From NCBI GenBank assembly GCA_030077755.1, contig JAQJZZ010000008.1:3286001-3350000 (forward strand): DNA of 64,000 nt. The letters are read 5' to 3'. Positions 46,055 to 64,000 of the stretch are shown piece by piece (positions within the stretch are counted from its first letter, which is position 1; each line of letters opens with the position of its first letter). Source of the DNA: Filosporella fistucella (Eukaryota; Ascomycota; Leotiomycetes; Helotiales). The notes under the pieces are model-generated. The model was not told the DNA's origin. It saw nothing but the letters and a program-made list of their open reading frames with translations, and searched no databases. Position numbers and translations under genes: made by a program.

Positions 46055-48853
46055 ATGGATTCCACTACACCTTCTTCAACATCTGAGCCAGCCGGATCTG
46101 CAAGCAATAACAAACGAAAAGCAAAAACTTTCCAGTGTCGATTTTGTCCTGATACTTTTAATCGACTTGAGCATATCCAACGCCATGAGCGAACACATAC
46201 AAAAGAGAAGCCATTTCCGTGCGCCTGCGGGAAAGCTTTTGCACGCCGGTGAGCAGAAAATAAACAAAACAGACTATATCTGATCGGATTGCAGTGATTT
46301 GTTGCTCAGGCATGAGAAACTGGTGCATGATATTGTATCAGAGCGAAATACAAGACGTTCACGTAATTCAGTAGCTGCATCTGCTGCAAGTCCCGTGACG
46401 CATTCGAATCAGACTGCTATGGGTCATTCAGAATTATCCTCGATGTGGCCGTCTCATAATCAGAATGGCTTTGTCTCTGGTAGTCCGCATCAAAATCCAG
46501 TGGGGAATTCGCATCAGTCTCCTGTTTCTCGACCGGATTTCTTTGCTGGACAGGCGGGGCAGCAGCAACATCATAATATCTCAAGCATTCCACCTACCTA
46601 TGTCGATGAACATGACTTTGTCATGTCTGGCACGGTTGATATCCCTGGAGATTATAACTTATTCTTTGACAACTTCGATGTATCAAATTTTTATCTCCCA
46701 GCTACCGTCTACGATTCTGATCTACCAATATCATTGTGGTCGAGACCAAATCCGGGGGTTTTTCCTGAGCAGCAGCAACACATCCGCGAGAATAGTTCTA
46801 CGTCCCAGAATGGAAATGATGCTTTGAGCCAATTTGGATCAAGACTGCCATCCCTACGGCCAGAAGAGCAAAATCTAATGGAAAGCGAGCCATCTCCTCA
46901 AGCAGATTTCCTCCGTGCGGGACCACCATGGAAGATTTCAGGACAAGACCACCGAGCTATTCAAAATAAATTGAAGGATTTTGAAAACATACTACCAGCA
47001 GATTTCGAACTCCCATCGCGACATACCCTATCTCGCTATTTCGAAGGTTACATCACCGGTTTCAACCAACATCTCCCATTTCTCCATATCCCTAGCTTCT
47101 CAGTCTCAAAATTCGTGCCGGAGTTGATACTTGCAATAGGTGCAGTGGGTGCTCAATATAGATTTGAGAGTTCAAAGGGGAATAAGCTTTGGTATGCTGC
47201 TAAGGCTGTGGCGAATGAGCAGATAAGGAGAAGGCAGAGTGAGCAGGTTGCTAGTATTCTGTCGTCGCCGAAAATGAGAAGTGCATCTTTGGGTACTTCT
47301 CCTGCTTCGCATGGATCGCCGGTGTATCATAATACACCGAGCTATAATAGTGCGCAGAGAGCGGAGGCTACGGAGGCTCTTAATGATATACGGTAAGTAC
47401 ATGATATCTGCAGCTTCCCGTTATGAATACTTACTCATATATCTTTCAGGACTCCATCCGGTCAAGCCCGTTTGGGAACTATTCAGACTCTTTTGATAAT
47501 GATGGCGATGGGAATGTGGGGACCACCACCTCTCCTCCGCGAAGCAACAAGCGTTCAGAACCAACTCGCCCTTCTCCTCCGAGAACATGGTCTACACTCC
47601 CCTCCCACCACCGCTCTAACATGGGAAGACTGGATCCTCATCGAAGGCGACTGCCGCACCAAATGTATAGCTTACTGTTTTTTCAACCTCCACTCCATAG
47701 CCTACGACAACGCACCCATCCTCCGAACTTCAGAACTAAAGACCAATCTCCCCCACTCAGCAGAAGAATGGCGCGCCAGTTCCTCCGAAGAATGGCTTAC
47801 AGCACGCCGAAAAACATCTCAAGGACCCCTATCATTCCACACAATCCTCTCCAAACTATTCTCTCCAACCCCAGAGAAAGAACATATCCCACCCATCTCC
47901 TCCCTAGGAAACTACGTCCTCATCCACGCCATAATCCAGCAAATATACCTAACCCGACACTCCGTCCTCTCCCTCCTCCCCACCGGTTCCCTTCCCCCCT
48001 CCCACCTCTCAACCCTCGACCGTGTCCTCCGCACCTGGCAAATAACCTGGGAAACAGCTCCAGAATCCTCTCTCGATCCTACGAACCCTTACGGCCCGGT
48101 CGCTTTCTCTTCTACTGCCTTATTACGACTAGCTTATATCCGCTTGCATTGTGATTTAGGCCCGTGTAGAGGCTTAGATACAAGGGATCCATATGTGATA
48201 GCGGAGAATATGAGACGCTGTCCTGAGTTAGAGAGGAGAGAGGGAATGAGTAGAGCGGTGTTGCAGGCGGCGCATGCGTTGAGTATACCGGTTAAGATTG
48301 GGATTAGATATGTGGCGCATACGCATACGTTGCTTTGGAGTATGCAGCATAGTTTGGCGAATTTGGAGTGTGCTTTTTTGTTGAGTATGTTCTATTTATC
48401 TCTCCTTCTCTCTCTTGGTGACTCTTAATGTCATCCTTCTTATCCTTTCTTTGTTTGTACCCTTCTCTGGCATTTCTTCGTCCCTCAATCCCAATCTCAG
48501 ACTTCACATCAAACTAACACGCACGTCAAGGTCGCTGGCTCTCCCTCCTCTCTACTTCTCCGCATCCCCTCACAGTTGACGAGTCGAATCTCCTCCAAAT
48601 GGTGCGAAGTATAGTAGGCGAAACGCATTTCGCCATCCCTTCTTCTCCTTCCTCACCTAATCCCCATAATGCCCAATCGCTAGCAACCACCAACCCTAGT
48701 CTGGAGATCAAGAAATTGAGTGTAGCGGTTGTACGCATCTGGGCTGAAGTGTTTACGGGTAGTCATCATGTCTTCCCGCTAGTGAAGGTTATTGGACTGG
48801 CGTTGGAAAGGTATGCGGAATTATGTGAGAGTGAGGAGGGTTTGGGTGATTGA
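46055..48853 (+). CDS. C2H2 zinc-finger transcription factor with fungal transcription-factor domain
   Basis: Four exons: 46055-46248, 46295-47392, 47450-48384 and 48531-48853, 849 residues. Two N-terminal C2H2 fingers (FQCRFCPDTFNRLEHIQRHERTH and, split by intron 1, the CACGKAFARRDLLLRHEKLVH finger) form the DNA-binding part. A Ser/Gln/Asn-rich linker follows, then from about residue 300 the helical fungal-specific regulatory domain (PFLHIPSF, ELILAIGAVGAQYRF, LGTIQTLLIMM). This layout is typical of regulators of carbon use or secondary metabolism. The last intron is long (146 nt) with a CTAAC branch point. Targets are unknown; it is 13 kb from the PKS and closer to the dehydrogenase and transporter genes. 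Confidence 0.9.
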
Positions 48854-49025: not shown

Positions 49026-50133
49026 CTAATACTCATAAAAGCCCCTCCCACTCTTCCTCCCCAATCTCCCCTCCTTAATCATATCTCCCAAAAGCACCCT
49101 CGGTTCCCCCGGCACACCCTCCCTCTCAGCAGCATAATGCTCCTCAATATCCCTCACTACATCCAAACCCACCGTATCCATCTGTTCAAACACTCCTATC
49201 GGCGTTTTTAACACAGATTTATATATCGCGTCTATTTCTTCCGGTGAGGCGACACCAGTTGCTGCAACGAGGAGAGATTCGCGTTTTATAGCGGCCCAGA
49301 TACTAGGTTTATTAGTGAACTGTTTGTGAGGAGCAGGGAAAGAGGAAGGAACGGGGGAAATACCGATTATATATATATCCCGAAGAATTCTTCTTTACAT
49401 GAAAGGGTTCGAAACCGTGGGATTTACATTCTTTCATTAAGAGGGGAATGATATGGGATTTCGTGAGCGGAGAACCCATGATTTCAATCGCTGGGGTTTC
49501 TGGTGGCCAATCTAACTCTCATTTATCAGTAAAGTCCATTGAGAAAGTTGGAGGATGGAAGGGGTAATATACATGAATGTAAACTTATACATCTGGATGC
49601 ATCTTTGAGATCAAGTCCGGACATGATTTCTGAGATGGTGAAACTACTCGAGTTGGAGGCGATGATTGTAGATGCGTTGGCGGATCTGTCGAGGGATTGC
49701 AGGATGGTGCGTTTTAGGGGGAGGGATTCGGGGACATTCTGTATTGTTCAGGTCAGTTTGTTATTAGAAAAGAAATTGTTGCATCGCATCCAAATTCTTG
49801 AAGTTCTAAAAGCCAAAGCACGTACCTCAACAGCTAACCAAGCCCCCTCCAACGCCTCCTCTAACCTCTCACCCCCAAACGTAGAAATCTTCCCATTCTG
49901 ATGTCCTTCGCTTTTCCCAACTGTATCTTTTAATTTCTCGATATCGGTTATTGCTGCTTCTAGAGCAGAGGGTTTGGAGTCAATTAGATGAACTGGTTTG
50001 CCTTGACTGGACCACTACTGTGGAAGTCAGTTTAGGGTTCGTATTTCTGATTATTGGTGGAGAGGGAATTGACCATGTATGCCAGTCGACGTCCTTGAGT
50101 TCCTGCTCCTAGGATTGCTACTGCGTTTCTCAT
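49026..50133 (-). CDS. 3-hydroxyacyl-CoA dehydrogenase-family oxidoreductase
   Basis: Five exons in order 50133-50074, 50014-49826, 49738-49573, 49511-49364 and 49302-49026, 279 residues. The first exon encodes the NAD-binding start VAILGAGTQGRRLAYM, with a GxGxxG fingerprint, continuing over intron 1 into GKPVHLIDS. Later blocks are VPESLPLKR, IIASNSSSF, HSYWPPETPAIEIMGSP (across intron 3) and the C-terminal dimerisation domain TPIGVFEQMDTVGLDVV, ending GRKSGRGFYEY. The family includes 3-hydroxyacyl-CoA dehydrogenases and L-gulonate/hydroxy-acid dehydrogenases; the catalytic His of the HxxxPP pattern is seen as HSYWPP. The adjacent acid-type transporter fits small organic acid catabolism. 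Substrate is not determined. Confidence 0.88.
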
Positions 50134-50818
50134 TCTGAGATTTGGGCGTCGTGAATATGGGATTTGAGGGAAGAGAATTTGTAATTGGGAAGTCGAGCTG
50201 AGAAAATATGGATAGAGATATACTTATTTCGAAGGGAATAAGAGAATGACTTTTTTCAGGATCTACATATTTTTTTCTATTTACTCACGGGATACAATAT
50301 ATTCATACCTCACAATCGCCCAAACTTTTCCATGTTCCTCACTTGGTACAAATGACGGAGGTGGAGGAGATACCCCATAAATATGGGGAAACTGACTCGT
50401 ATAATCCAATAATTCTCCTGCCCACATAATGCCCACATTCAGCTCCAGACTTCGTTCTCCGCACAAGCCGTTGCCCACACTGCCCACATCATCTGCCCGC
50501 ACGCCACCATATTGCATCCCGTTTTCCAAGTATGCCCGCAGCACAAACAACCGCAAGGTCCAGATCCAAAAGTGGATTCTATTCCAATGAATGGCTTCAA
50601 AAATGTCATTCGATGCGGGGCCCCATTTTATCATCTACGTGGAGAACGACTGTTCAGGCCAAGAACACCCGAGTTGGACGGCAGGTCAGCTTTGCGGGGA
50701 AAAGCTGGATTTTCGGGATAGTGGGAATAATTTCTTTCTTCTATATCAATGGGCTGTTCCCTCCTTTGTATCGTAGGCAATCCCATCAATTTCAGAGCTT
50801 GAAGGTTGAGCATTCAAA
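50134..50818. promoter_or_regulatory. Divergent promoter region, dehydrogenase and ACS transporter
   Basis: 685 bp between start codons at 50133 (minus) and 50819 (plus). No gene supported; overlapping short frames at 50281-50822 conflict with each other and have no domain. Confidence 0.4.
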
Positions 50819-52625
50819 ATGACTATCTCTGTCCATGATCCCCGTCAGCAGACTTCTTCGGAAGCAGACAGCGAGAAAGTCGTCATCGCAAATGATGAGT
50901 TTAAACATCATAATATGGTATATACCCCCTTCCCTCTCTCCTACCTATACGAATGGTACTAACGCCCCCAGCCCCTCAAAAAAGGCCACGATGCCAACTG
51001 GACCGGCGACGGGATCGATACCTCAAACGTGGACCCTCAAAAAACACTCCGCAAAATGGATATCCGTCTTATCCCTATGCTAGCAGTTCTCTATCTCTTA
51101 TCTTTCCTGGATCGCAGTAATATCGGCAATGCCAAGATTCAAGGCATGCAAACGGATCTTAAACTCAGTGGTCCGCAGTATAATCTGTGTGCTACCGTGT
51201 TCTTCTTCACTTATTGTCTTTTCGAAATCCCATCGAATTTGTTGTTGAAGAGATTTCGGCCTTCGATTTGGCTGCCTAGTATTATGGTTGCGTGGGGGAC
51301 TGTTATGGTGAGTTGATATTATGTTGTTTTATGGTGCAGAAGCTGATAGTGTCGTAGACTTTGATGGGATTGGTGAAGAGTTATCATGGATTGCTTATTG
51401 CGAGATTGTTTTTGGGCATTGCGGAGGCGGGATTGTATCCTGGTGTTGCGTATTATTTGACTATGTGGTATGTTTCAAGCCTTCTTATGATGTCTCACAC
51501 GTCCTATACCTTGAACATCAAGAGATTATTTACTGATTATTACAGGTACTGCACTGACGAACTCGCTCTTCGACAAGGTCTTTTCTTCAGCGCAGCAAGT
51601 ATGGCAGGAGCCTTTTCCGGCTTACTTGCATACTGTATCGCTAAGATGGACGGCATCGCAGGTGTTGCAGGCTGGCAATGGATCTTCATCCTCGAGGGAC
51701 TTTTGACTGTTGCTGTCGCTATTGCAGCTTTCTTCTTACTCTACGATTTCCCGGATACTGCTGGATTCTTGACTGTGGAGGAGAAGGCATGGGTCGTACA
51801 TCGATTGAAGTATCAAGGAAGCAAGAAGAGTGGAAGAGCTGTAGCGGAGAGCGAGCATTTCGACTGGAAATATGTTATCAAAGGTACTTATCAACTCGTC
51901 ACATTGCCCTTGTGCTTCAACATAGCTAACTCGAGTCTACAGCTCTGACCGACTGGCAATTATACCTCAGTGTTCTTATGTATTGGGGCATCGTCTGTCC
52001 TCTCTATGGCATCTCATTATTCTTACCCACCATCATCAAACAGCTCGGCTATACCTCCACCACAGCACAACTCCTTACCATCCCCATCTACTGTACCGCC
52101 GCTGTCCTAGCAATCATAGTCTGCTGGTTATCAGACAAAGCCGCCAAACGAGGTGCTTCTCGCTGGCCATATGTATTCTTCCCTATGTGCGCTATCCTCG
52201 TTGGCTTTATCATGGCCATATCTGGCTCAGCACACGGTGGTGTTCCAGGAGTAGTGTACGCAGGTGTATTCATCGCTACTTGTGGTATCTACCCAGCATT
52301 CCCTGGAAACGTCACTTGGATCAGCAATAATCTTGCAGGTAGCTACAAGAGAGCTGCTGGTATGGCTTTCCAAATCGGTGTTGGAAACTTGGGAGGTGCT
52401 ATGGCATCTAATTTCTATCGCGGAGTGGATGCACCGAAATATCTACTCGGACATGGTCTTGAAATTGGATTTGTTACTGTTGGAATGTGTGCCTGTGTTG
52501 CTTTGAGAATTAGTTACGGACGGATTAATGCCAAGAGAGAGAGAAGTGGAGAGGCGGAGGGATTGACGGATGAACAGTTGGCGGATCTGGGAGATAAGAG
52601 CCCTTCTTTTAGATATACTCTATAA
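50819..52625 (+). CDS. MFS anion:cation symporter (Dal5/TNA1-type)
   Basis: Five exons: 50819-50917, 50972-51307, 51358-51467, 51546-51883 and 51943-52625, 521 residues. The ACS family imports small organic anions such as allantoate, nicotinate, pantothenate or hydroxy acids. After a 70-residue cytosolic N-terminus it has 12 spans. Family marks are KMDIRLIPMLAVLYLLSFLDR and SNIGNAKIQG at span 1, FFFTYCLFEIPSN, ARLFLGIAEAGLYPGV, and YCTDELALRQGLFFSAASMAG directly after intron 3. Intron 3 (51468-51545, 78 nt) is in frame and stop-free, so it can be mistaken for coding. Intron 1 has a TACTAAC branch point. The divergent dehydrogenase suggests a transporter-enzyme pair; this is inference. Confidence 0.92.
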
Positions 52626-52692
52626 GCTACTTCTCAAACGGTGGTATTTACCGGATTCAAACTCAAGCAATGAAATCAAAATTCATGTTCTT

Positions 52693-54750
52693 CTACTCTT
52701 CCACATTTCCTGCTGCGACTGATTCTTCACCTCCTCGTTCCTCCACACTCCTCCCCTTCAACCTATCTCTCCTCCAAACCCTCCACCACAATAACCCAGC
52801 AGCCAAAACATTAACCCCCGCAAACGCAATCATCACCCTAAACTGCATATCATAACTCTCACCATATATCCCCGCCACCCTCCCCATATCTCCCTCACTC
52901 AAACCCCCTCCTGCAATCCCACTACTCAACCCCTCAATCTGTCCCTTCGTCAAAAAAACCGGTAACTCTTTATCCAATTTCGAATGCAACAAACTAGAAC
53001 AAATCGCCAACCCCACACAACCCCCCAAGGTCCTCGCCATATTCACTGCCCCCATCGCCGCTGCAATAACATTATCCGCTACCTCTATCTTCAGCATAAA
53101 CATCAATGCAGGCATGATTAATCCTAGTCCTGCGCCTATGATAACCTGGTATCCGAATTGTTCTTTTGGGAGAGAGAGGCTCGTAGAGAGAGAAGACATG
53201 AGTGCCATGCCTACAAGATTGAGTATTGTACCTAGGAACGCGATGGGAGAGGAGAAAGATGGGTAGCGACCGATTAGAGAGCCGCCTGCCATGGCGAAAA
53301 CAGGGGATATGAGCGTTAAGGGGAGGAGGAGTAGACCAGCGCGTGTGGCGGAGGTAAGGTTGACGTGTTGATAGCGTTGAGGGATTTGGATTATGGAGAC
53401 GTACCAGCAGAAACCTGTTGTTAGCATTGTTCTGATTCTGTTAGCTTCTCTTGTATATTTCTTATCGTTTGCATTAGGAAAGAATAAAAAATTAAAGCTC
53501 CAGCGATGAGAATGTAGAAAAGGACGTACAAAAACAAGGTCCCTACAATCCCATCCCCAAGCAACGCTACAGGAAAAATAGGCTCTCTCCTCCCTTTCCT
53601 GAAAACAATATATTCCCATCCCATGAAAATAGCTAGCATCACTATTCCTGTAACCAGTGTCCCAATGATGATTCCAGTAGACCACGCATATTTCGCTACT
53701 GAACCTCCTTCTTCCAATGCGAAAAGGAGGGGAATAGCCCATGCTAGAGAGAGAAAAGCGCCGAAAATATCGATTTGGTGGACACTGGATTTGATATTAT
53801 GGATTGTTTTGTCTGGAGGCATGTATATGAACAGGAGAACTAGTAAGAGAGCTATTGCTGGGATACTAAGGAATTGTTAGTTAGGAAATAAGAGTAATAT
53901 AGAGAACGAGTTTTACTTGAGCCAGAAAATCCACTTTTTAGATCAGTATATCATCACATTTCAAGAGGGAGTGAGGGGTAAGAACAACGTACTCTCCAAC
54001 TTGTATTATCAGCAATCACACCTCCCAATATCGGGCCCAACAAACTCGCCATGGCAAAACAAGAACTTAGGATTCCGGTGCAAAGACCTAGTTTATCCAT
54101 AGGTACGATCTTGGCTAGGACAACGAAAACGAGGGAGTACATTCCTGAACCGCCTATTCCTTGGAAGGCGCGAAATATGATTCTATGGAACGTCAGTTCT
54201 GAAGCTAGAGAGGTGAGAGAGGGGGGAAATACAATTGTATCATCGTCCTCGCCACAGCGCACGCCAGCGAGAAACCCCCAAAAAAGATATTGGCGACTAT
54301 AAGAAGCCATTTTGTGCCGAATGTATCGCTTAGTTTTGACCAGATGAGAATAAATGCTATTGGTCCCATACCATTAACATGTACTCCAAATTTTCAGTGC
54401 CAGAAAGAGGAGGAATGTAGAAGAGAGGAAGATACCATTATATGTCAATAAATAAGCTACCACAATCCACCCCGCATCATTTAAATCATGCAATTCACTT
54501 GAGATTTTTATTAATGCCGTGCTGACAATTGTGGTTTCGAGCGCGCAGAGGAAGAGAGAGACCCATAGTCTGTGGGTGTTAAGACTGGCAGTGTGGAAAA
54601 GTGAGGGATTGAGCAGGAGGGAAAGACTGACCCAAAGACGACGAGACTTAAATGGAGATTATTTAACTCTCCTGTTTTGTGCGTGAGAGATACTCCATTC
54701 TCCTCCCCAGAAACTGGAGAAGGCGAAGAATTTTCTTTGCTCTCTTCCAT
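52693..54750 (-). CDS. MFS drug:H+ antiporter, DHA2-type (14-span) efflux pump
   Basis: Seven exons in order 54750-54632, 54569-54436, 54356-54233, 54182-53993, 53933-53917 (17 nt), 53865-53530 and 53431-52693, 552 residues. Such pumps export toxic metabolites and are frequent in fungal secondary-metabolite clusters. After splicing the antiporter motifs are clear: LWVSLFLCALETTIVSTAL (span 1), WIVVAYLLTYN, SDTFGTKWLL (loop 2-3), FRAFQGIGGSGMYSL, LGPILGGVIADNTSWR then WIFWLNIPAIAL. The last of these needs the 17-nt microexon. It is divergent from the FAD monooxygenase (929 bp between starts), which fits co-regulation with the cluster. Confidence 0.91.
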
Positions 54751-55679
54751 CGATGCAGATTCTATTCAGCACTGGAGATAGCAAAACCGATTTAACGCCA
54801 CAAGCCTTGATCTGCAAACAAAAACACGTATTCCAATTCTGAGCTCTATCAGATAACATGAGCATATTCTAGCAGGTAGAACGCACGTCGGAAAAGAGAG
54901 CTTGGCAGACATGATTAATGACATGATTCTACCCGACCCGTTCTCGTTGCTATATTACCCGCTGCCACCTCGTTTGAATAGGGGGTATGGTTAGTGGCGC
55001 AGACGCAGACGGGGAGAGATCCACATCTTGATGATGTACGGTACACTGTTCTAGAAGGATAAACGAGGTACAGTCGTATCACGGGTTTGGCAATGGGGAG
55101 TAGGATGTTAAGCGCTGATGTAATATTACGTTTGTTGGGTATTGGTGGGTGTTAAAGTGGTACGATGTTTGGGCGGAGCGGAGCGGGGCGGAATATTTCA
55201 TGGCGGAAAGACGAATTGGGTATGCTCGAGGTGCAGGAACAGACGCATGAGCTAGGATCGTTGATCCTGGTTCCTGGGTAAAGGTACCGAAGGATTCAAG
55301 GCTTGGGATGATTAGATTTATTTCTTGGGAATCTTACGTTGACATAGTGGATATTGAGGTGAGAGATGTGCCTCTTTTTGGATTAGGCACTATGAGGGGG
55401 AATACGTAGGATCTCGTCTGATATGGAGATCTAATCATTCGTTTTTTCAAGTTGAGTGAGATGCGCGAGAAGGGTTGAAGCCATATCAGATGTTTTGGAA
55501 GGCTCAGCAATTTCTGGTCATTTTCGGCGAGGTAGGTGGATGGAATTCTCACTTACTCGGAGCTTTCAAAGTGGCATATCACAGCCAAAGAATGAAATAA
55601 TACTTCAGACTCGATATAGCGACTTCACTCAGCAAACCTCGAATTGTTATTTCACCTGATTTCCTATCAAAAAACCACC
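54751..55679. promoter_or_regulatory. Divergent promoter region, DHA2 pump and FAD monooxygenase
   Basis: 929 bp between start codons at 54750 (minus) and 55680 (plus). No gene supported. A short GGAGCGGAGCGGGGCGG run lies at about 55174-55190. Confidence 0.45.
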
Positions 55680-57129
55680 ATGTCAGAGAAATCCCCCTCC
55701 TCTCCCCTCAAAATCGCCATTATCGGCGCAGGAATAGGCGGTCTCGTCCTCGCTCAACTCCTTCGAAATGACTCCCGCTTCAATATCACAGTCTACGAAC
55801 GCTCCTCCCGCGATGGAAACATCAGTCATCTCGCCGGATTCAGAATCTTCCTCGCCCAGGAAATGCTTACCGCGCTCCGAAAACAGCTTCCAGCAGAAGT
55901 TGTAGTGGGCATGGAAAAAGCGATTGGTGTCCAGCCGCCCACAGGACAAGATCTAGCATTGATTGACGAAAAAGGAAATGTAAAATTGAAGTACATGCCC
56001 AAGGACTTCCGGGATGCGAGGAGCGTATCGAGAAGTAAATTGAGGAATGCGTTGTTGATTGGTCTTGATGAGATCGTGAAGTGGGATACTGAGTTTGAGA
56101 GTTATGAGAGTTTGAAACAGGGTGTGAGGGTGCATTTTGCTCAGGATGTCACGATGGATTGTGATGTTTTGATTGGGGCCGATGGAGCGGGGAGTAAGGT
56201 TAGGAAACAGTTGCTTCCTCAATCTACCAGGGATAGTTTGGGTGTTACGGTGTTGTATTTCAAGATGCCTTTTACGCCTGAGACGGAGGCTATGATACCA
56301 TATGGATCTGGATGTATGGTGAGTCATTTTTCGCTCCCTTCTAAAATTTAGACTGTAGATGCTAATAAAAGCAGATTATGGCTCCAAGAAGATCAATGAT
56401 CATCTCCTACTTCAAAGACCAGGTAAAACCATACGGACCTTACAATCTCGAGACAATCGACGACAACGACTCTTTCCTCATGTGTGGATTGGGCTGCTAC
56501 ACAAGTGAGTTTGTAGATCAGAGTAAACACCCCGATGAGATGAGTCCAGAAGAGTTGAAAGATGATTGTATTGCACGGTCACAGAATTGGCATCCATTAT
56601 TTCGTTCTTTGATCTCGCTGGCGGTGCCTGAATCAGTGTTTGTATCGCACATCAAGACACAACATAAGATCTCACCTTGGAAATCGGGCAATGTTACAAT
56701 TCTGGGCGATGCTGCTCATAGGTAAGATACCAAATTATTTTTACCATAAACAAAGAAATGGCTGATACACGATCCTCTTTTAGTATGACACCATACCTTG
56801 GCAAAGGAGCAACTTCCGCAATTTTTGATTCATTGAGACTTGCCCATGAACTCAAATCTGCATCTAGCTTCGGTGTACAAGACTTGAGCACAGCTTTGCA
56901 CTCTTATGAAGCAGCTATGCTTAAGGAAGGGTTTGGAATGCAGCAGAAGAGCAAGAGAGTTCATGATTTGGTGTTTATGGGGAGTAATAAGACTAAGGCG
57001 AGATTGAGGAATAAGCTTTTAAGGGCACTGGATGTACTTATCGGTGACAAAACTCCTAAGTCACAGCCATTTCCCGGTATGTTGACTGAGCTTTTTACTG
57101 CTGATAAAAGGGGAAGGCTGACGTTTTGA
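55680..57129 (+). CDS. FAD-dependent monooxygenase (aromatic hydroxylase / epoxidase type)
   Basis: Three exons: 55680-56318, 56375-56721 and 56784-57129, 443 residues. Group A flavin monooxygenases use NAD(P)H and oxygen to hydroxylate or epoxidise small molecules. The N-terminus has the Rossmann motif IAIIGAGIGGLVLAQLL (GxGxxG) and an acidic strand end VYER. The second FAD block is DVLIGADGAGSKVRKQL, and the third is VTILGDAAHSMTPYLGKGA, the last split by intron 2 within the His-Ser pair. The intron 1 acceptor is at GCAG (56374). There is no signal peptide; the C-terminus is basic. It lies between the DHA2 pump and the FSH/UGT/PKS group and is a credible tailoring enzyme of that cluster. 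Confidence 0.92.
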
Positions 57130-58175
57130 CTACTAGTAAAATATGGCAGTAAGACGTGGAAAGCGGAAAAGGTGGCAATTTGACAGTGGCAATCAAGCAC
57201 CGCAATAATTAAGGTTATTTTTTGTTTCTTTTCATTATAATTCTGTGGTAGATGCCTACAATTATGTTGGGAATTTTTTTCATTTCAAGATACCACTTCT
57301 AGCCCTCACATATCCCCACTTCATGTATAAAAAATACCAAAAAAAATCTCAAGGTTCATACTCCAAGTTTCTAAGGATAATATCTACAAATCATGTGTTC
57401 CACGACCCAAAACCAAAATATCAATGCTGTACGTTGGGGATTTACCCACTTCAAAGACAATGTGCTGAGCGAATCAGCAATAGTAGTTGACGCCACTGCA
57501 TACGACACCATCATCGGGACTAAACCACAATCCTTCCAGAAACAATTTCCCGAGCTCAGCCCAAAACCAATAATCTAATCTAAAATCATCTTTCCTCCCA
57601 AAGCCCCAAAAACCCGATCCACTAATCCTCACCCGGGATCTTCCTCCGTCCCCACAAAGATCAGCCCACCTAATCCACCTTTCTCATCCCAGATATCCTC
57701 AACAAAACAGTGGCTCTTCCCGCCTTGCCGACAACCCGAGAATCGGAACACAAAGATGGCGCGGACAAGCCCTAATGCAGAGATGGCATCAGTCGGGAGG
57801 AGAATAAATTAAAGTTGCGGCGTAGTTGGATACAGCGTTAGGCAAGTGTGAGGCGTACACGAGTGCGGCGCGGATTTTAGCCTTGATGCAGATGTCATGC
57901 TGTGTGGATATTGTACACGAGGAGAGGAGGTTAGGATTAAAATTGGGGTGTGGTTGATTTGAAGGTTTTAAGAGCCTTTTTGTAGGGTGAAATGAGTGTG
58001 AGAAGAAGGCATGTTGTGGTGGAAGTTTGGAAAGGGGCTCGCTTAATGTGGGGTAATCTAATGGTGATATCTTTACCACGTCTGTCTTACAGAGAAGAAA
58101 AACCAGAGTTCACCGTAAGTACTACAAGAATATGATGAGACTAATTAGATAACGTATTTGAATGAAATTGCAACT
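57130..58175. other. Convergent intergenic region
   Basis: About 1 kb between convergent 3' ends. Short frames at 57393-57578 (plus) and 57789-58079 (minus) lack support. Nothing else recognised. Confidence 0.45.
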
Positions 58176-59008
58176 TTAATGCGCCGACAAAGCCCTCTCC
58201 ATCCCCTTCCTAACTACTCTCACCATCTGCGCCGTAATACCCACTCCCCTCGGAATCTCATGTCCTGCACCATGATCAAACTCCACCCTCATACTCGGAG
58301 CACACATATCTCTTAGATTCAAACTCTCTTGATACATCTCATCCCTCTTACCATAAATATGCACAGTCGGAATTTTGATTTGCCTATGCTCCTTCTCTAA
58401 TACCTTCGAGTTGAATCTGCTCCATTGGCCTGTCTCTTGATTGACGGACAGAGCACTGGATCCGCAAATGAAAATGGCGAGGTGAAAGGGAGGCGAAGAG
58501 AAGGGGTGATTAGTCTGGTAGGAGATAAGGACAGAGGCAAGCAAAGCAGCTCCTTGGGAGAATCCGATGCAGCCGTCGAAAGGGCCTTCGGTGGCTATTA
58601 TGTCGTTGATGTCGTCTATAGCTGTGCGGTGCGTGTGAGCGCCGTGGTGAGGTGAGTACCACGCTTTGTATGAATCGTAGGGAAATATATTGCGTATACC
58701 TAGTATATTTATTCAGTTTCGCAGAGAAAATATAGTGAGAGGTAGAGGTACTTACCATCTGCGGGCGGCACTTCATGCTCTCCCTCATAAAATTCGAATT
58801 CATCTAGGTCACCGAGGGCATGGCGTATGGAACCTAAACAAGCTTTGTTGGTTTTGGAGGCTGCATGTATGGGTCATATTTACCAAGTTGGAATTCAAAG
58901 ATCTAAGAACATCCGTCAGTATATGTCATTCTCCTGAGGCTTTGGTAGCGGAGGGTAGCATCTCACTTCAGCATTCGTGCCCATTCCATGCAAGCATAGG
59001 AACCTCAT
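58176..59008 (-). CDS. FSH1-family serine hydrolase
   Basis: Four exons in order 59008-58967, 58902-58884 (19 nt), 58833-58756 and 58699-58176, 220 residues. Small alpha/beta hydrolases of this family include the thioesterase-like enzymes that release chains from highly reducing PKSs (LovG type). After splicing the N-terminus reads MRFLCLHGMGTNAEIFEFQL, then GSIRHALGDLDEFEFYEGEH, as in the family. The nucleophile Ser is in GPFDGCIGFSQGA, the Asp in HIYGKRDEM and the His in HGAGHEIP, a complete catalytic triad. Length is normal for the family. It is a neighbour of the UGT (tail to the same strand) and 2.8 kb from the PKS, so a product-release role is likely but not shown. Confidence 0.88.
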
Positions 59009-59090
59009 CGCGACGATAATTGAGCAAAAGCAAGGCAAATGAAGAGATGGGATTTATTTCATGAGAACGCAACGACTATCTCATTGCAAT

Positions 59091-60899
59091 TCAGGAACGG
59101 AGTTGTGTCAGCACCAAGAGGCCTGGTTGGGACCAAGCAGCCACTTTTGAAAAGCCCAGATGCGCCCATCCTACGAGGCTTACCCCAATCATTGGAATCA
59201 ATGACCTGATCTGTCGCGGTTTCGTGAATGCAAGATAAAACAAGGTCCCAAAGGACAGCCCACTAAGCATTCCCAATACCTTCAAATCCAAGTTTGTGGC
59301 TCGCCACGCAGACATCCTAGAATCTGCAGTCTGCAAATGCATCGGTCGTCTTCGGGCACTACTTTCGTATGCAGCGGCACCATTTGGTACCAGGCTAAAT
59401 CGGTGATCGTATAGAACTTCCTCAATGAGATCAGCACCATATTCCTTCTTCCTTGCGCAGACTTGTGCGATATGCTGCATGCGTCGCACATCCTGAGCAA
59501 TTCTGCCATCTTGATCCATCAGGAGGGTTCTTATCTTGGCAAGGATCTCCTCAGTTGAGAAGTCTGCCTTATCTAGCGCCAGAGCTACGCCTGCTTCTGT
59601 GAGGCGCATTGCGTTCATCAGCTGATCGAAAAAGAACCCTAGTGTGAGCATAGGCGTGCCGTGGAACAAGGCTTCATTGACGCTACTTCCTCCGCCATGT
59701 GTCACAAAGAGAACAGTCTCGGGTCGCTCCAAGATTGCTCTCTGGGGAGCGAATGGAGTGAATAGCCATGATGGATGTTTATTGGCTATAAGGGACTCCA
59801 CTGAAGTGTTATTACTGCCAATCTTCTTGTTGGGATCAAACAATTTTCGTTGTTGATCATTTGCAGCCCAGATTATCCCGTCAATGATGCCACCATCCAG
59901 GAGCTCGCCGAAGGCCGTGAGGAATTTTTGAAGATTTCCCGGAAGGATTTGGATGTGTGTGCCAAATGCTACGTAAAGGACACGGCTATGTGCATTGTAA
60001 AATTTCTCGAATATATCCTCAAGTGGTGGATACTCGTCTGATAATATTGGACCCACGGCGGCAACCAGAGGTGGGAGATCCTTTGGAGTTTCCAGACCCC
60101 AGAAAGAATTAACCAAAATGAGATAGTTTGGCTTGTTGAAAATAGGCAGATTGTAATTGATCCCAGATTCTCTCCTCATCCCCCTGACAAAGCGTAGATA
60201 AGATAGTATTGCGGGTAGGGCTCTCAATGGTCGCAGGGCTGCACGAATCCTTGTCGTGATTGAGACATTCTCGCTCGTGAGTGCATCGATTTGGAAGCCG
60301 GGTATGCCCGGAATATAACTTGCACCCACCATACCATATGGCATCTGAGGCCAGACCATGACGATAGGGATGCCTGTCTGATACTGAATATCCTTGACAG
60401 CATCGACAAAAAAATCAGCAACAATGATATCTGGTTTACAAACTGGAACAATTTTCTGGAGAAAACTGTAGTCTGAAGTCCAGAAGGCGTCGACTGTGTG
60501 CTTTGGTTTGAAGACTTCTTTGAAGTCTTTTCGTGCATCCGACTCTTGCATTGCCAAGTAATGTGGTGTTTCCACTTCAAGAGGCATAGGCAGTCCCATT
60601 GGATAAACTTTTGTTACGAATTTGAAAGATGGAGTCTGAACCCATTTCTCTTGCCCTTGGTGGGTAGCAAATTCAACAAGATGACCTCGCGCTGCAAGGA
60701 TCCGGCCTAGTTCTAGGACAGGAGCTGGTACCCGGAAGTCAACAATCTGGAAAGCTTTGGTAGTTTGGATACTTTGAGAATATCACCATGCCCAAAATGG
60801 GAACTTACAAGCATGAGTGAAACCCCCAGTCCCCACCACCAGCAAGACTTTCGTTCTCTTGCCATCCGAGATGCGATTGGCAGGCTCGTGGTCTGCCAT
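59091..60899 (-). CDS. UDP-glycosyltransferase (GT1-like) with C-terminal membrane segment
   Basis: Two exons, 60899-60809 and 60724-59091, 574 residues. It should transfer a sugar from a UDP-sugar to a small lipophilic acceptor. The N-terminus has VLLVVGTGGFTHAS, running over the 84-nt intron into PVLELGRILAARGHLVEFATHQG, the GT-B acceptor-domain start. The donor-binding region has FGTHIQILP, WLFTPFAPQRAIL and FVTHGGGSSVNEALFHGTPMLTLGFFFDQLMNA, the GT1 signature with HGG, E and DQ. A hydrophobic stretch near residues 515-570 (LKVLGMLSGLSFGTLFYLAF and further) suggests membrane attachment, as in animal UGTs. It is divergent from the PKS, so its substrate is probably the polyketide. Confidence 0.92.
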
Positions 60900-61800
60900 A
60901 TATGCTATACAAGTGGTGTGGTGCCACAATATCAGAATGGTTGTGGAATTGAGAAATGGAGAAATGGAAAATGATGAGTTTACGAAAAGTCGTACGTCGT
61001 CTGCTGAGGTTGTATTCTGGTGTGGCTTCCCTGCCCCTTAAATAGCCAGAAGCGAGTATTGGCGGAGAGGGGCGGAGCGGAAACTAGTTGGAGCTATGGA
61101 TGCTACTCCGTACATAATTTAATTTCGAGTGCACACAGCCAGGGTATTATCAACAAGGAACAAATAACCCTGGTTAATCCCAACGAAGGATAGCTGTCAG
61201 AATGCAGATTGAATCGACAAACCTCTGAATACCTTCATCAAACCACGCATTATACGGCTAAACTCAGCTGATTACTCGGGTGACCTAGGATGGACGACCT
61301 GAGGATGATCGATTCCAATATACTTTGCTGGTCACATTTTTCTCGCGTGTCGTGTCCTGCGTCAGCGATTTTTCCAAGAAGTGCAAATTGTTTCCATCGA
61401 GGTAGGCCTATCAGACCTGTATAGCTTCAAGCTGCAGCATTCTTCACAGCCCTGATTCTCAGCTGATGTTTCATTTTAGCCTTCGCGATCCAGGCCCTCA
61501 ACCCCACTCAGAATTGTCTGTCTTTGAGCACCCTCCTGTAGCGCGATCCATTGTGTGCTATCCAGGATGTTGATCCGTGAATGAATTTGGCGCCGCACAA
61601 TGGCAACCTTGATGGGATTCTCGAATGGTGCTCCAATGTCGTCAGCTGTTGTGGTCCGCATGCCAAACTTACGAGGCTGGATAGCAGCCTTGCGAAGAGA
61701 CACATTTACTTAATGTTCTCGTATGCCCAGTTCAGATGACAAGAATCCCTCTCATCAATAGACTTCCACTCGCTATTTCTTCCAGTTCAACCTGAACAAC
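60900..61800. promoter_or_regulatory. Divergent promoter region, UGT and PKS
   Basis: 901 bp between start codons at 60899 (minus) and 61801 (plus). No supportable gene; the minus-strand frame at 61476-61705 has no domain. A shared promoter fits coordinate expression of PKS and UGT. No specific factor site is named. Confidence 0.5.
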
Positions 61801-64000
61801 ATGACGTCTCGGAGTAACATTTCTGAGATTCTTTCTCTTGATGGCTTATCTCCTATTGCTATTGTTGGCATGGCATGCCGACTGCCAGGTTCGGCCACAA
61901 GCCCTGAAAAATTGTGGGATATGATAGCTAGAAAACAATCTGGTCGCTGCGAGATTCCTAAATCTCGAATGAACGTCGATGCTTTCTATCATCCTGATCC
62001 TGACAGAAATGGAACTGTAAGACATCGATTGAAAGAAGTTTCACATTTGTGCTAATATTGATATTAAAGTTCAACATCCGTGCTGCCCATTTTTTGGACG
62101 GTGATATTGCTGCTTTTGATGCTCCATTTTTCTCGATTTCCCCAGCTGAGGCGAGTGGGATGGACCCGCAGCAGCGCCTGATGATGGAAAGTGCATACGA
62201 AGCTATTGAGAATGCTGGCATTCCAATGGAACAACTTGCCGGCTCGAATACTAGTTGTTATGTTGGTTGTTTCTCCCGCGATTATAACGAGATTTTGACC
62301 CATGACCCGGAGACTTCTCCGGTCTATGTCTCCACCGGAAACGGTGCAGCCATTCTGTCAAATCGAGTTAGCTATTTCTTCGATCTGAAGGGGCCCAGTC
62401 TCACCGTGGATACTGCTTGCAGTAGCAGTCTTGTTGCACTCCATCTCGCATGCCAGAGCATTAGGTCTGGAGAGTCGAAAGCCGCTATCGTCGGTGGCAC
62501 CAACTTAATCTTTAATCCAGATGTAATGATTGTAAGTTGCTGCCAAGCATTGCTTCACCCATCCTTTCTTTTGATCGAAGTACGCGAGATTACACAAAGT
62601 GCTTAGTTGACATTCTATCTTCTCTCTAGGCAATGTCCAATGTCCACTTTCTCGGTCCAGATGCAAAGTGCCATACATATGACCACCGGGCAAATGGATA
62701 CTCTCGAGGTGAAGGTATTGCAGCCATTGTTCTGAAGCCTCTGGAAGATGCCTTGAGAGACAACGATACCATTCGAGCGGTCATCCGAGGATCTGCTTCG
62801 AACCAAGATGGTAGAACAGCTGGCATTATGCTGCCGTCGAGAGATGCCCAACAAACATTGATCAATTCTGCTTACGAAGCGGCAAAATGTGATCCAGCAA
62901 GTGTGGGCTACTTCGAAGCTCATGGTACGGGAACACCTGCTGGTGATCCCCTTGAGGCTGGAGCAATTGGCTCAACTCTTGGCCAGCATCGAGCACCTGG
63001 TGAAGAGAATAAATTATATGTAGGCTCAGTCAAGACAAATATAGGCCACTTGGAGGGGACAAGTGGTCTAGCAAGCGTGATAAAAACCGTCCTAGCTCTC
63101 GAAAAAGGAGCCATTCCGCCAAATCTTCATTTTGAGAAGGGGAATGAGGCCATAGATTTCGAGGGCTGGCATATTCGTGTCCCAACCGAGCTTTCGCCAT
63201 GGCCAGTTGCAGGTGTGAGAAGAGCAAGTATTAACTCGTTCGGATTTGGTGGCACGAATGCTCATGTTATCCTCGATGATGCCTATCATTATCTCAAAAC
63301 TCGAGGCTTGCGGGGTTCTCACAGAACCTCGCCCACGCCTCTTTTACTGGACGACATTGCTATTAGTAATGGCAACTCGGTGATTTCAGCAGATTCTCCG
63401 GGACACTCTGGCTATGTATCTCATGATAGCGAGGATGGTTTCTTCCATTCTTCAAAGCAGCATCGAATTTTCATCTGGTCAACCCATGAAGAAGGCATTG
63501 CAAAGGATAACGCACAAGCATATGCCTCACAGCTAGAGTCTCGAAAGGAGGTGGATGATAACCAGTTCCTTGATGATTTGTCATATACACTCTGTGAAAG
63601 GCGGTCCCGCCTGCCCTTGAAGTGTTTCATTGTTGCCAATTCAATTTCAGATCTCACAACGAAGCTCATCGCCTCGAGACAAAAGCCCATTCGGGCAGAT
63701 GTGAGTTTAACCCCAATTGTTTGAATCTATTGTCTGATAATTCGTAGGGTACCCGCAGTCCACGCACAGCTTTTGTGTTCACTGGCCAAGGTGCACAATG
63801 GTGGGGAATGGGCAAAGAGCTGCTGCACACTTATCCTGTCTTCGCACGCTCTATCAAGCAAGCAGATGAAGCACTGCAGATATTTGGATCGACATGGTCA
63901 TTGAAAGAGGAGTTGAAGAAAGACAAGGAAACATCCCGTGTCGGCGAGGCTCAAATCAGCCAGCCACTTTGCACTGCCATTCAGCTTGGTCTTGTCGACC
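61801..64000 (+). CDS. Highly reducing type I polyketide synthase (3' partial)
   Basis: Exons so far: 61801-62016, 62070-62531, 62630-63700 and 63748 to beyond 64000; about 667 residues visible. The beta-ketoacyl synthase domain starts at PIAIVGMACRLPGS and has MDPQQRLMMESAYEA, the catalytic Cys in VDTACSSSL, and the two His in EAHGTGTPAGDPLEA and KTNIGHLEGTSG. All three catalytic residues are present. The KAsynt C-terminal part ends SFGFGGTNAHVIL. After a linker, the acyltransferase begins at FVFTGQGAQWWGMG. The KS-first layout without an upstream SAT domain and the KS sequence itself point to a highly reducing enzyme. DH, ER, KR and ACP domains would lie to the right, unseen. It anchors the gene cluster. 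Confidence 0.94.

What the first reader, a model, noticed from the sequence alone, without database searches (positions are those of the whole stretch)
52693..64000. Left arm of an undescribed-looking PKS gene cluster with its own glycosyltransferase
The DHA2 pump, FAD monooxygenase, FSH1 hydrolase, UGT and HR-PKS lie side by side with two divergent promoter pairs. HR-PKS clusters with both a release hydrolase and a UDP-glycosyltransferase are uncommon among characterised ones and predict a glycosylated, oxidised reduced polyketide. Gene identities come from visible motifs; the pathway is inferred.
Basis: partly seen in the sequence, partly recalled or inferred. Interest (0 to 1): 0.75.

Follow-up and report, generated by a model that had tools for sequence, protein, structure and literature searches.

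The report
Fungal polyketide-glycoside gene cluster
A compact fungal gene cluster, with close counterparts in several other fungi, that probably makes an oxidised, sugar-bearing polyketide, perhaps of the kind of the antifungal fusapyrones; it looks real and conserved but is of a known general kind.

Summary
Five intact genes lie side by side at 52,693-69,917 (window coordinates continued): DHA2-type pump, FAD monooxygenase (FMO), FSH1 hydrolase, UDP-glycosyltransferase (UGT) with a hydrophobic C-terminus, and a complete 2,608-aa highly reducing PKS (KS-AT-DH-MT-ER-KR-ACP), with two divergent promoter pairs. It is not a left arm: the PKS ends 5.9 kb past the window, then come one SDR gene and non-biosynthetic genes, so the window holds nearly the whole cluster.

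Linkage elsewhere supports a unit: relatives of UGT, PKS and FMO share a contig in four other fungi, and UGT plus PKS in ten more cases. UGT and PKS divergence match (r=0.97 within the window's clade). FSH1 and pump were not tested this way. Within this genome 1 of 32 KS loci has a UGT nearby and 8 of 32 an FSH1: the UGT is the unusual part, not the hydrolase.

There is precedent: the fusapyrone cluster has a methylating PKS, UGT, FSH1, MFS and a dehydrogenase. This one differs in PKS clade (48% identity to presumed fusapyrone-type PKS), in having an FMO, and in no P450 being found nearby. Best reading: an orphan member of the PKS/UGT cluster type, most likely making an FMO-oxidised alpha-pyrone glycoside (pyrone and C-linkage inferred).

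The parts
52693..54750 (-). DHA2-type MFS efflux pump, 554 aa, 7 exons (52693-53437, 53530-53865, 53917-53933, 53993-54182, 54233-54356, 54436-54569, 54632-54750)
   Evidence: hand splice model, no stop; MFS_1 1.3e-43 and TRI12 1e-09; TIGR00711 EmrB/DHA2 best but under its cut-off
54751..55679 (.). divergent promoter region pump/FMO; holds GGGCGGAGCGGA at 55171-55182
55680..57129 (+). FAD-dependent monooxygenase, 443 aa, 3 exons (55680-56318, 56375-56721, 56784-57129); GxGxxG, DG and GD motifs present
   Evidence: PF01494 9.3e-17; closest relatives 71% (Halenospora) and down; best solved match 4hb9, 5.3e-43; motifs
58176..59008 (-). FSH1 serine hydrolase, 220 aa, 4 exons incl. a 19-bp exon; GFSQG nucleophile motif, Asp and His motifs present
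   Evidence: PF03959 8.9e-37; one PDB match, 1ycd, 6.4e-07; motifs
59091..60899 (-). UDP-glycosyltransferase, 574 aa, 2 exons (59091-60724, 60809-60899); GGFTHA and donor-site THGGGSS/FFDQ; two C-terminal hydrophobic stretches (511-531, 538-556)
   Evidence: PF00201 5e-21 on exon 2; relatives; hydropathy (threshold 1.3) and motifs
60900..61800 (.). divergent promoter region UGT/PKS; holds GGGCGGAGCGGA at 61070-61081
61801..64000 (+). 5' part (exons 1-3 and start of exon 4) of a 6-exon, 2,608-aa highly reducing PKS that runs on to L010:6917; KS-AT-DH-MT-ER-KR-ACP, no TE match

Best explanation
This is one nearly complete secondary-metabolite cluster: HR-PKS, UGT, FSH1 hydrolase, FMO and DHA2-type pump, possibly with the SDR beyond the window. 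Proposed path: the PKS builds a partly reduced, C-methylated chain (KS, AT, DH, MT, ER, KR and ACP motifs present; shown as sequence). No releasing domain was matched, so the chain leaves either by closing into a 4-hydroxy-alpha-pyrone or with help of the FSH1 hydrolase (inferred). The FMO hydroxylates the chain or the pyrone (inferred; it also follows related PKSs where no UGT was seen). The UGT, probably membrane-anchored, adds one sugar, most likely C-linked to the pyrone as proposed for fusapyrone (inferred), and the pump exports the product (inferred). PKS, UGT and FMO belong to a conserved set scattered over several fungal classes.
For: Intact genes and motifs. Cosmosporella gene numbers 38810 (FMO), 38840 (UGT), 38850 (PKS) fit the window's order. 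UGT and PKS identity matrices correlate: r=0.96 for 15 pairs, 0.97 for the 10 of the window's clade, each with 0 of 2000 permutations as high. PKS and FMO trees give the window matching neighbours. Of 32 KS loci in this genome only this one has a UGT within 15 kb. Fusapyrone precedent (PMC10512364). V. dahliae, whose UGT falls in the window's UGT clade, makes alpha-pyrone-3-C-galactosides (PMC12299652 passage).
Against: No expression or product data. FSH1, pump and SDR were not tested for linkage elsewhere. The Fusarium rows presumed to be PKS40 sit in another PKS clade (48% for P0170) and pair with another UGT clade. No row named Verticillium was among the 120 listed PKS hits, so the V. dahliae UGT need not serve this kind of PKS. 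5 of 14 other members of the window's PKS clade had no UGT, and 7 of 14 no FMO, on the same contig among rows entered. Halenospora, the nearest FMO, showed neither PKS nor UGT among listed hits. Xylona has a 62% UGT on a contig other than its PKS. No P450 or regulator was found nearby. Shared species history also raises the correlations.
Confidence: 0.5

Rival explanations
1. Same cluster, but the product is an O-glycoside or glycosyl ester of a reduced polyketide acid: FSH1 hydrolyses the chain to a free acid, as LovG does, and the UGT glycosylates a hydroxyl or the carboxyl.
For: FSH1 catalytic motifs are present and the PKS shows no releasing domain. UGT family and clade do not settle C- versus O-transfer. 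Proliferapyrone A of F. proliferatum, an alpha-pyrone polyketide glycoside, is cut at an ester to proliferic acid (PMC11596042 passage).
Against: The characterised cluster nearest in gene content, fusapyrone, has an FSH1 too and gives a pyrone C-glycoside.
Confidence: 0.35
2. The cluster proper is PKS+FMO+FSH1 and the UGT and pump are a neighbouring detoxification pair, not biosynthetic.
For: In the sister PKS clade 4 of 9 have the FMO and 0 of 9 a UGT on the same contig among rows entered. UGTs and DHA2 pumps are also common detoxification genes (recalled).
Against: The UGT lies between FSH1 and PKS, shares a promoter region with the PKS, and is on the PKS contig in 9 of 14 other members of the window's clade, with matching divergence.
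Confidence: 0.08
3. The genes are ordinary neighbours, conserved for reasons unrelated to the PKS, or the cluster is decaying.
For: An interspersed repeat lies between PKS and SDR; no gene has been shown to be expressed.
Against: No internal stop in the five gene models over 17 kb; PKS, UGT and FMO are linked in other fungi.
Confidence: 0.04

Closest known systems
Fusapyrone cluster FmFPY1-7 (FmPKS40) of Fusarium mangiferae (PMC10512364, sections 20 and 25)
   Same: PKS with methyltransferase, UDP-glycosyltransferase, FSH1 hydrolase, MFS transporter, a dehydrogenase (an SDR lies just beyond our PKS)
   Different: Our PKS is in another clade (48% to a Fusarium row presumed to be PKS40); FMO present; no P450 (Fpy7) found nearby; UGT in another clade (47%). 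Whether Fpy4 is an FMO I could not see
Verapyrones A-B of Verticillium dahliae, alpha-pyrone-3-C-beta-D-galactosides (review passages PMC12299652, PMC12790562, PMC12422058)
   Same: A V. dahliae UGT falls in the window's UGT clade, 60% identical to the window UGT
   Different: I could not tell whether that UGT is the characterised one, and no row named V. dahliae was among the listed PKS hits
Proliferapyrones of Fusarium proliferatum (PKS16, by a title in the reference list of PMC12788152; original papers not read)
   Same: alpha-pyrone polyketide glycosides (PMC11596042 passage); F. proliferatum and five related species carry an FMO 51-56% identical to ours
   Different: That FMO is in the other FMO clade; whether it lies in the PKS16 cluster I could not see
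Epipyrone A C-galactosyltransferase (Fan et al. 2024, title seen in the reference list of PMC12422058)
   Same: membrane-bound fungal C-glycosyltransferase acting on a pyrone
   Different: sequences and cluster not compared
LovB / LovG of lovastatin
   Same: Best solved match of our PKS exon 4 is LovB 7cpx; FSH1 compared with LovG by PMC10512364 for Fpy3
   Different: No UGT in the lovastatin cluster (recalled); LovG not aligned here

Membership tests
Highly reducing type I PKS | KS, AT, DH, ER, KR, ACP in one chain, with catalytic motifs | tested here: met
   Pfam domains; DTACSSS, EAHGTGT, GHSSGE, DH His and Asp motifs, HAAAGGVGQ, GGLGGLG, GVDSL (motif meanings recalled)
Highly reducing type I PKS | C-methyltransferase with SAM motif (optional) | tested here: met
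   Methyltransf_12 2.8e-19; LEIGAGTGG at 1496
HR-PKS/UGT (polyketide glycoside) cluster | UGT linked to the PKS beyond this genome | tested here: met
   UGT+PKS on the same contig in 14 cases, 9 of them in the window's PKS clade
HR-PKS/UGT (polyketide glycoside) cluster | a glycosylated polyketide product | not testable with these tools
   no metabolite data
Fusapyrone (FPY) cluster | PKS orthologous to FmPKS40 | tested here: inconclusive
   Fusarium rows P0165-P0167, P0169, P0170, presumed PKS40, form another clade, 48% for P0170; F. mangiferae itself was not in the list, so the presumption is untested. Points to not met
Fusapyrone (FPY) cluster | UGT, FSH1, MFS alongside the PKS | tested here: met
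Fusapyrone (FPY) cluster | P450 (Fpy7) | tested here: not met
   No PF00067 match within 100 kb; 92 of 211 candidates scored. The paper says two Fusarium species lack it too
Fusapyrone (FPY) cluster | dehydrogenase (Fpy6) | tested here: inconclusive
   An SDR lies at about L010:7437-8348 (exon matches), but a repeat separates it from the PKS and its orthology was not tested
Pyrone C-glycosyltransferase | C-transfer to a pyrone | not testable with these tools
   Only clade and C-terminal hydrophobic stretches were seen
FSH1 / LovG-type releasing hydrolase | FSH1 family with Ser-Asp-His motifs | tested here: met
   PF03959 8.9e-37 and motifs
FSH1 / LovG-type releasing hydrolase | releases the PKS chain | not testable with these tools
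   activity needs an assay

The most novel reading that the evidence does not exclude
The cluster belongs to an uncharacterised, class-spanning family in which a dedicated FMO, rather than a P450, oxidises a C-glycosyl pyrone. The PKS tree order (Thermoascus, Lindgomyces, window, then Sordariomycetes) fits old vertical descent with many losses, and the UGT, seen with 9 of 14 other members of the window's clade but with 0 of 9 of the sister clade, looks like an addition specific to the window's clade.
Probability: 0.3. Interest if true: 0.55.

Novelty: new member of a known kind. Interest (0 to 1): 0.38.

Why it matters
Several fungal pyrone glycosides are antifungal (fusapyrone and dactylfungins, PMC10141101 passages; epipyrone A, PMC7766273 abstract start), and in 2021 C-glycosylation was called undescribed for fungal metabolites (PMC10512364, section 25). 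This family gives a PKS, UGT and FMO set that recurs in Hypoxylaceae, Nectriaceae and Lindgomyces, so one product could annotate many orphan clusters. The sister PKS clade, with FMO but no UGT seen, offers a natural comparison of aglycone and glycoside pathways.

Tried and rejected
Left-arm idea: rejected after fetching 49 kb to the right, listing its ORFs and scanning 18 stretches. Parascedosporium UGT-FMO fusion (P0046) as evidence of linkage: dropped, because its FMO half is not of this family (35% over 37 residues). Regulator in the cluster: none found; a Fungal_trans ORF at 47,427-48,425 lies beyond another MFS gene and was not counted. Shared promoter word GGGCGGAGCGGA: kept as a hint only. 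It occurs 6 times in 45.8 Mb, two of them in the two divergent promoters (the reversed control word occurs 7 times), but 122 of 1000 random draws of two stretches of that size shared some 12-mer. RNA families at gathering score: none in 50,000-64,000. tRNA in L010: none called. Structure prediction was not run; it would not decide C- versus O-transfer. The three protein searches went to UGT, PKS and FMO, so FSH1, pump and SDR relatives were not sought.

For the tally I entered 30 UGT, 31 PKS and 21 FMO rows of 120 listed in each table, choosing named or matching ones; the rest were not counted, so the counts are of matches found, not rates. The trees used 57 of 120 UGT, 49 of 120 PKS and 32 of 120 FMO rows. 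The 32 KS loci are KS-domain loci and may include fatty-acid synthases.

Paper searches that bear on 'undescribed'. Term look-ups: epipyrone paper PMC7766273 held none of six cluster terms; the Hypoxylaceae survey PMC8403587 held no FSH1, pyrone or LovG term and its glycosyl passages were on terpenoids; the Verticillium PKS survey PMC9495618 held no glycosyl or UDP term; the F. fujikuroi comparison PMC5675463 gave no gene content for PKS16 in the passages seen.
Full report
What is there. The window is contig C7:3,286,001-3,350,000 of a 45.77-Mb assembly in 19 contigs. I continue window coordinates past 64,000 into the flank fetched (L010 starts at 63,001). Hand-drawn splice models give five intact genes: DHA2-type pump 52,693-54,750(-), 7 exons, 554 aa; FMO 55,680-57,129(+), 3 exons, 443 aa; FSH1 hydrolase 58,176-59,008(-), 4 exons, 220 aa; UGT 59,091-60,899(-), 2 exons, 574 aa; HR-PKS 61,801-69,917(+), 6 exons, 2,608 aa.

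PKS. Pfam shows KS, AT, DH, methyltransferase, ER, KR and ACP, and the eleven motifs looked for are present (their meanings are recalled). No thioesterase or other releasing domain was matched. The best solved relative of exon 4 is LovB (7cpx).

Edges. To the right: an SDR at about L010:7437-8348(-), seen as exon matches and not fully modelled; then pectate lyase, carboxylesterase, fungal rhodopsin-domain protein, Sua5, a clathrin-adaptor small-chain protein, secretory lipase and cerato-platanin; farther on an O-fucosyltransferase-like ORF, a sugar transporter and MCM4, and 42 kb beyond the PKS a second FAD_binding_3 ORF. A short interspersed repeat with 15 matches in the genome, itself included, lies between PKS and SDR (L010:7036-7316). 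To the left: another MFS gene at 50,963-52,625, a Fungal_trans ORF, a STIMATE-family gene and glycoside hydrolases (12 of the ORFs listed to the left were scanned). No P450 or Zn2Cys6 match lies within 100 kb, within the limits of those searches. So the cluster is nearly complete in the window; whether the SDR belongs is open.

Is it one unit? The protein searches give the longest contig of each hit. Equal contig lengths give UGT+PKS on one contig in 14 cases, PKS+FMO in 12 and UGT+FMO in 6, with all three in 4: Hypomontagnella monticulosa, Jackrogersella minutella, Cosmosporella sp. and Lindgomyces ingoldianus. Species names agree too, except 2 UGT+PKS cases and 1 PKS+FMO case from unnamed records. 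In Cosmosporella the locus numbers run FMO 38810, UGT 38840, PKS 38850, in keeping with the window. For 15 UGT-PKS pairs, window included, the identity matrices correlate at r=0.96; for the 10 pairs of the window's clade alone at r=0.97; for the other 5 at r=0.98. Permutations as high: 0, 0 and 34 of 2000. Shared species history contributes. In the PKS tree the window sits with Hypoxylaceae, Nectriaceae, Madurella, a long-branched Ophiocordyceps row, Lindgomyces and Thermoascus; in the FMO tree with Halenospora varia, Hypoxylaceae, Nectriaceae, Madurella and Lindgomyces; in the UGT tree with Hypoxylaceae, Cosmosporella and, more widely, Coniochaeta, Podospora, Verticillium, Thelonectria, Lindgomyces and others. 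Of 14 other members of the PKS clade, 9 have a UGT and 7 an FMO on the same contig among the rows entered; of 9 sister-clade members, 0 and 4. Missing partners may be annotation or listing gaps. FSH1 and pump were not tested in other genomes.

Control inside the genome. The 68 KS matches group into 32 KS loci, not all of them necessarily PKSs. Within 15 kb, 8 of 32 have an FSH1, 2 of 32 an FMO-like gene, and 1 of 32, this one, a UGT; the searches found 11 UGT and 16 FSH1 loci in all. FSH1 beside a KS gene is thus routine here; the UGT is the unusual part.

Mechanism. Shown: domains, motifs and, for PKS, UGT and FMO, linkage. Inferred: chain building with C-methylation; release by pyrone closure or FSH1; oxidation by the FMO, on the polyketide rather than the sugar because it follows related PKSs where no UGT was seen; glycosylation by the UGT, whose two C-terminal hydrophobic stretches suggest membrane anchoring; export by the pump. 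The pyrone C-glycoside reading rests on fusapyrone (PMC10512364, sections 20 and 25), dactylfungins (PMC10141101, PMC11287750, passages) and verapyrones and epipyrone (review passages). It is an analogy: the presumed fusapyrone PKS rows are in another clade.

Organism. Unnamed. The nearest FMO is from Halenospora varia (a leotiomycete, recalled), and the PKS order fits Leotiomycetes, so a helotialean fungus is likely (inference).

Known or new. HR-PKS clusters with UGT, FSH1 and MFS are known. I found no paper describing this FMO-bearing family in the ten searches listed under Tried and rejected, in an open-licence library only; the original papers on verapyrone, proliferapyrone and epipyrone biosynthesis were not read. 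Hence 'new member of a known kind' and interest 0.38.

Noticed in passing
L010:7036-7316 (C7:3356036-3356316): Short interspersed repeat between PKS and SDR, 15 matches in the genome (itself included) at 72-100% identity; tRNA-like to the eye in places but no tRNA called; may be SINE-like.
   Followed up: partly
55171-55182 and 61070-61081: Identical 12-mer GGGCGGAGCGGA in both divergent promoter regions, 6 copies in the whole genome; possible regulator site, weak statistics.
   Followed up: partly
G000:C14:535863-541417: An FMO-like gene and a UGT about 4 kb apart with no KS locus within 15 kb; perhaps another glycoside pathway.
   Followed up: no
G000, 8 of 32 KS loci: FSH1 hydrolases sit within 15 kb of a quarter of this genome's KS loci; 8 of its 16 FSH1 loci are so placed.
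   Followed up: partly
46284-48425: ORFs of a Fungal_trans transcription factor left of the pump; relation to the cluster unknown.
   Followed up: no
L012:4116-4535: Cerato-platanin gene in the right flank, with pectate lyase, esterase and lipase genes nearby.
   Followed up: no
L014:8843-9316: Second FAD_binding_3 ORF 42 kb beyond the PKS; not counted in the cluster.
   Followed up: no
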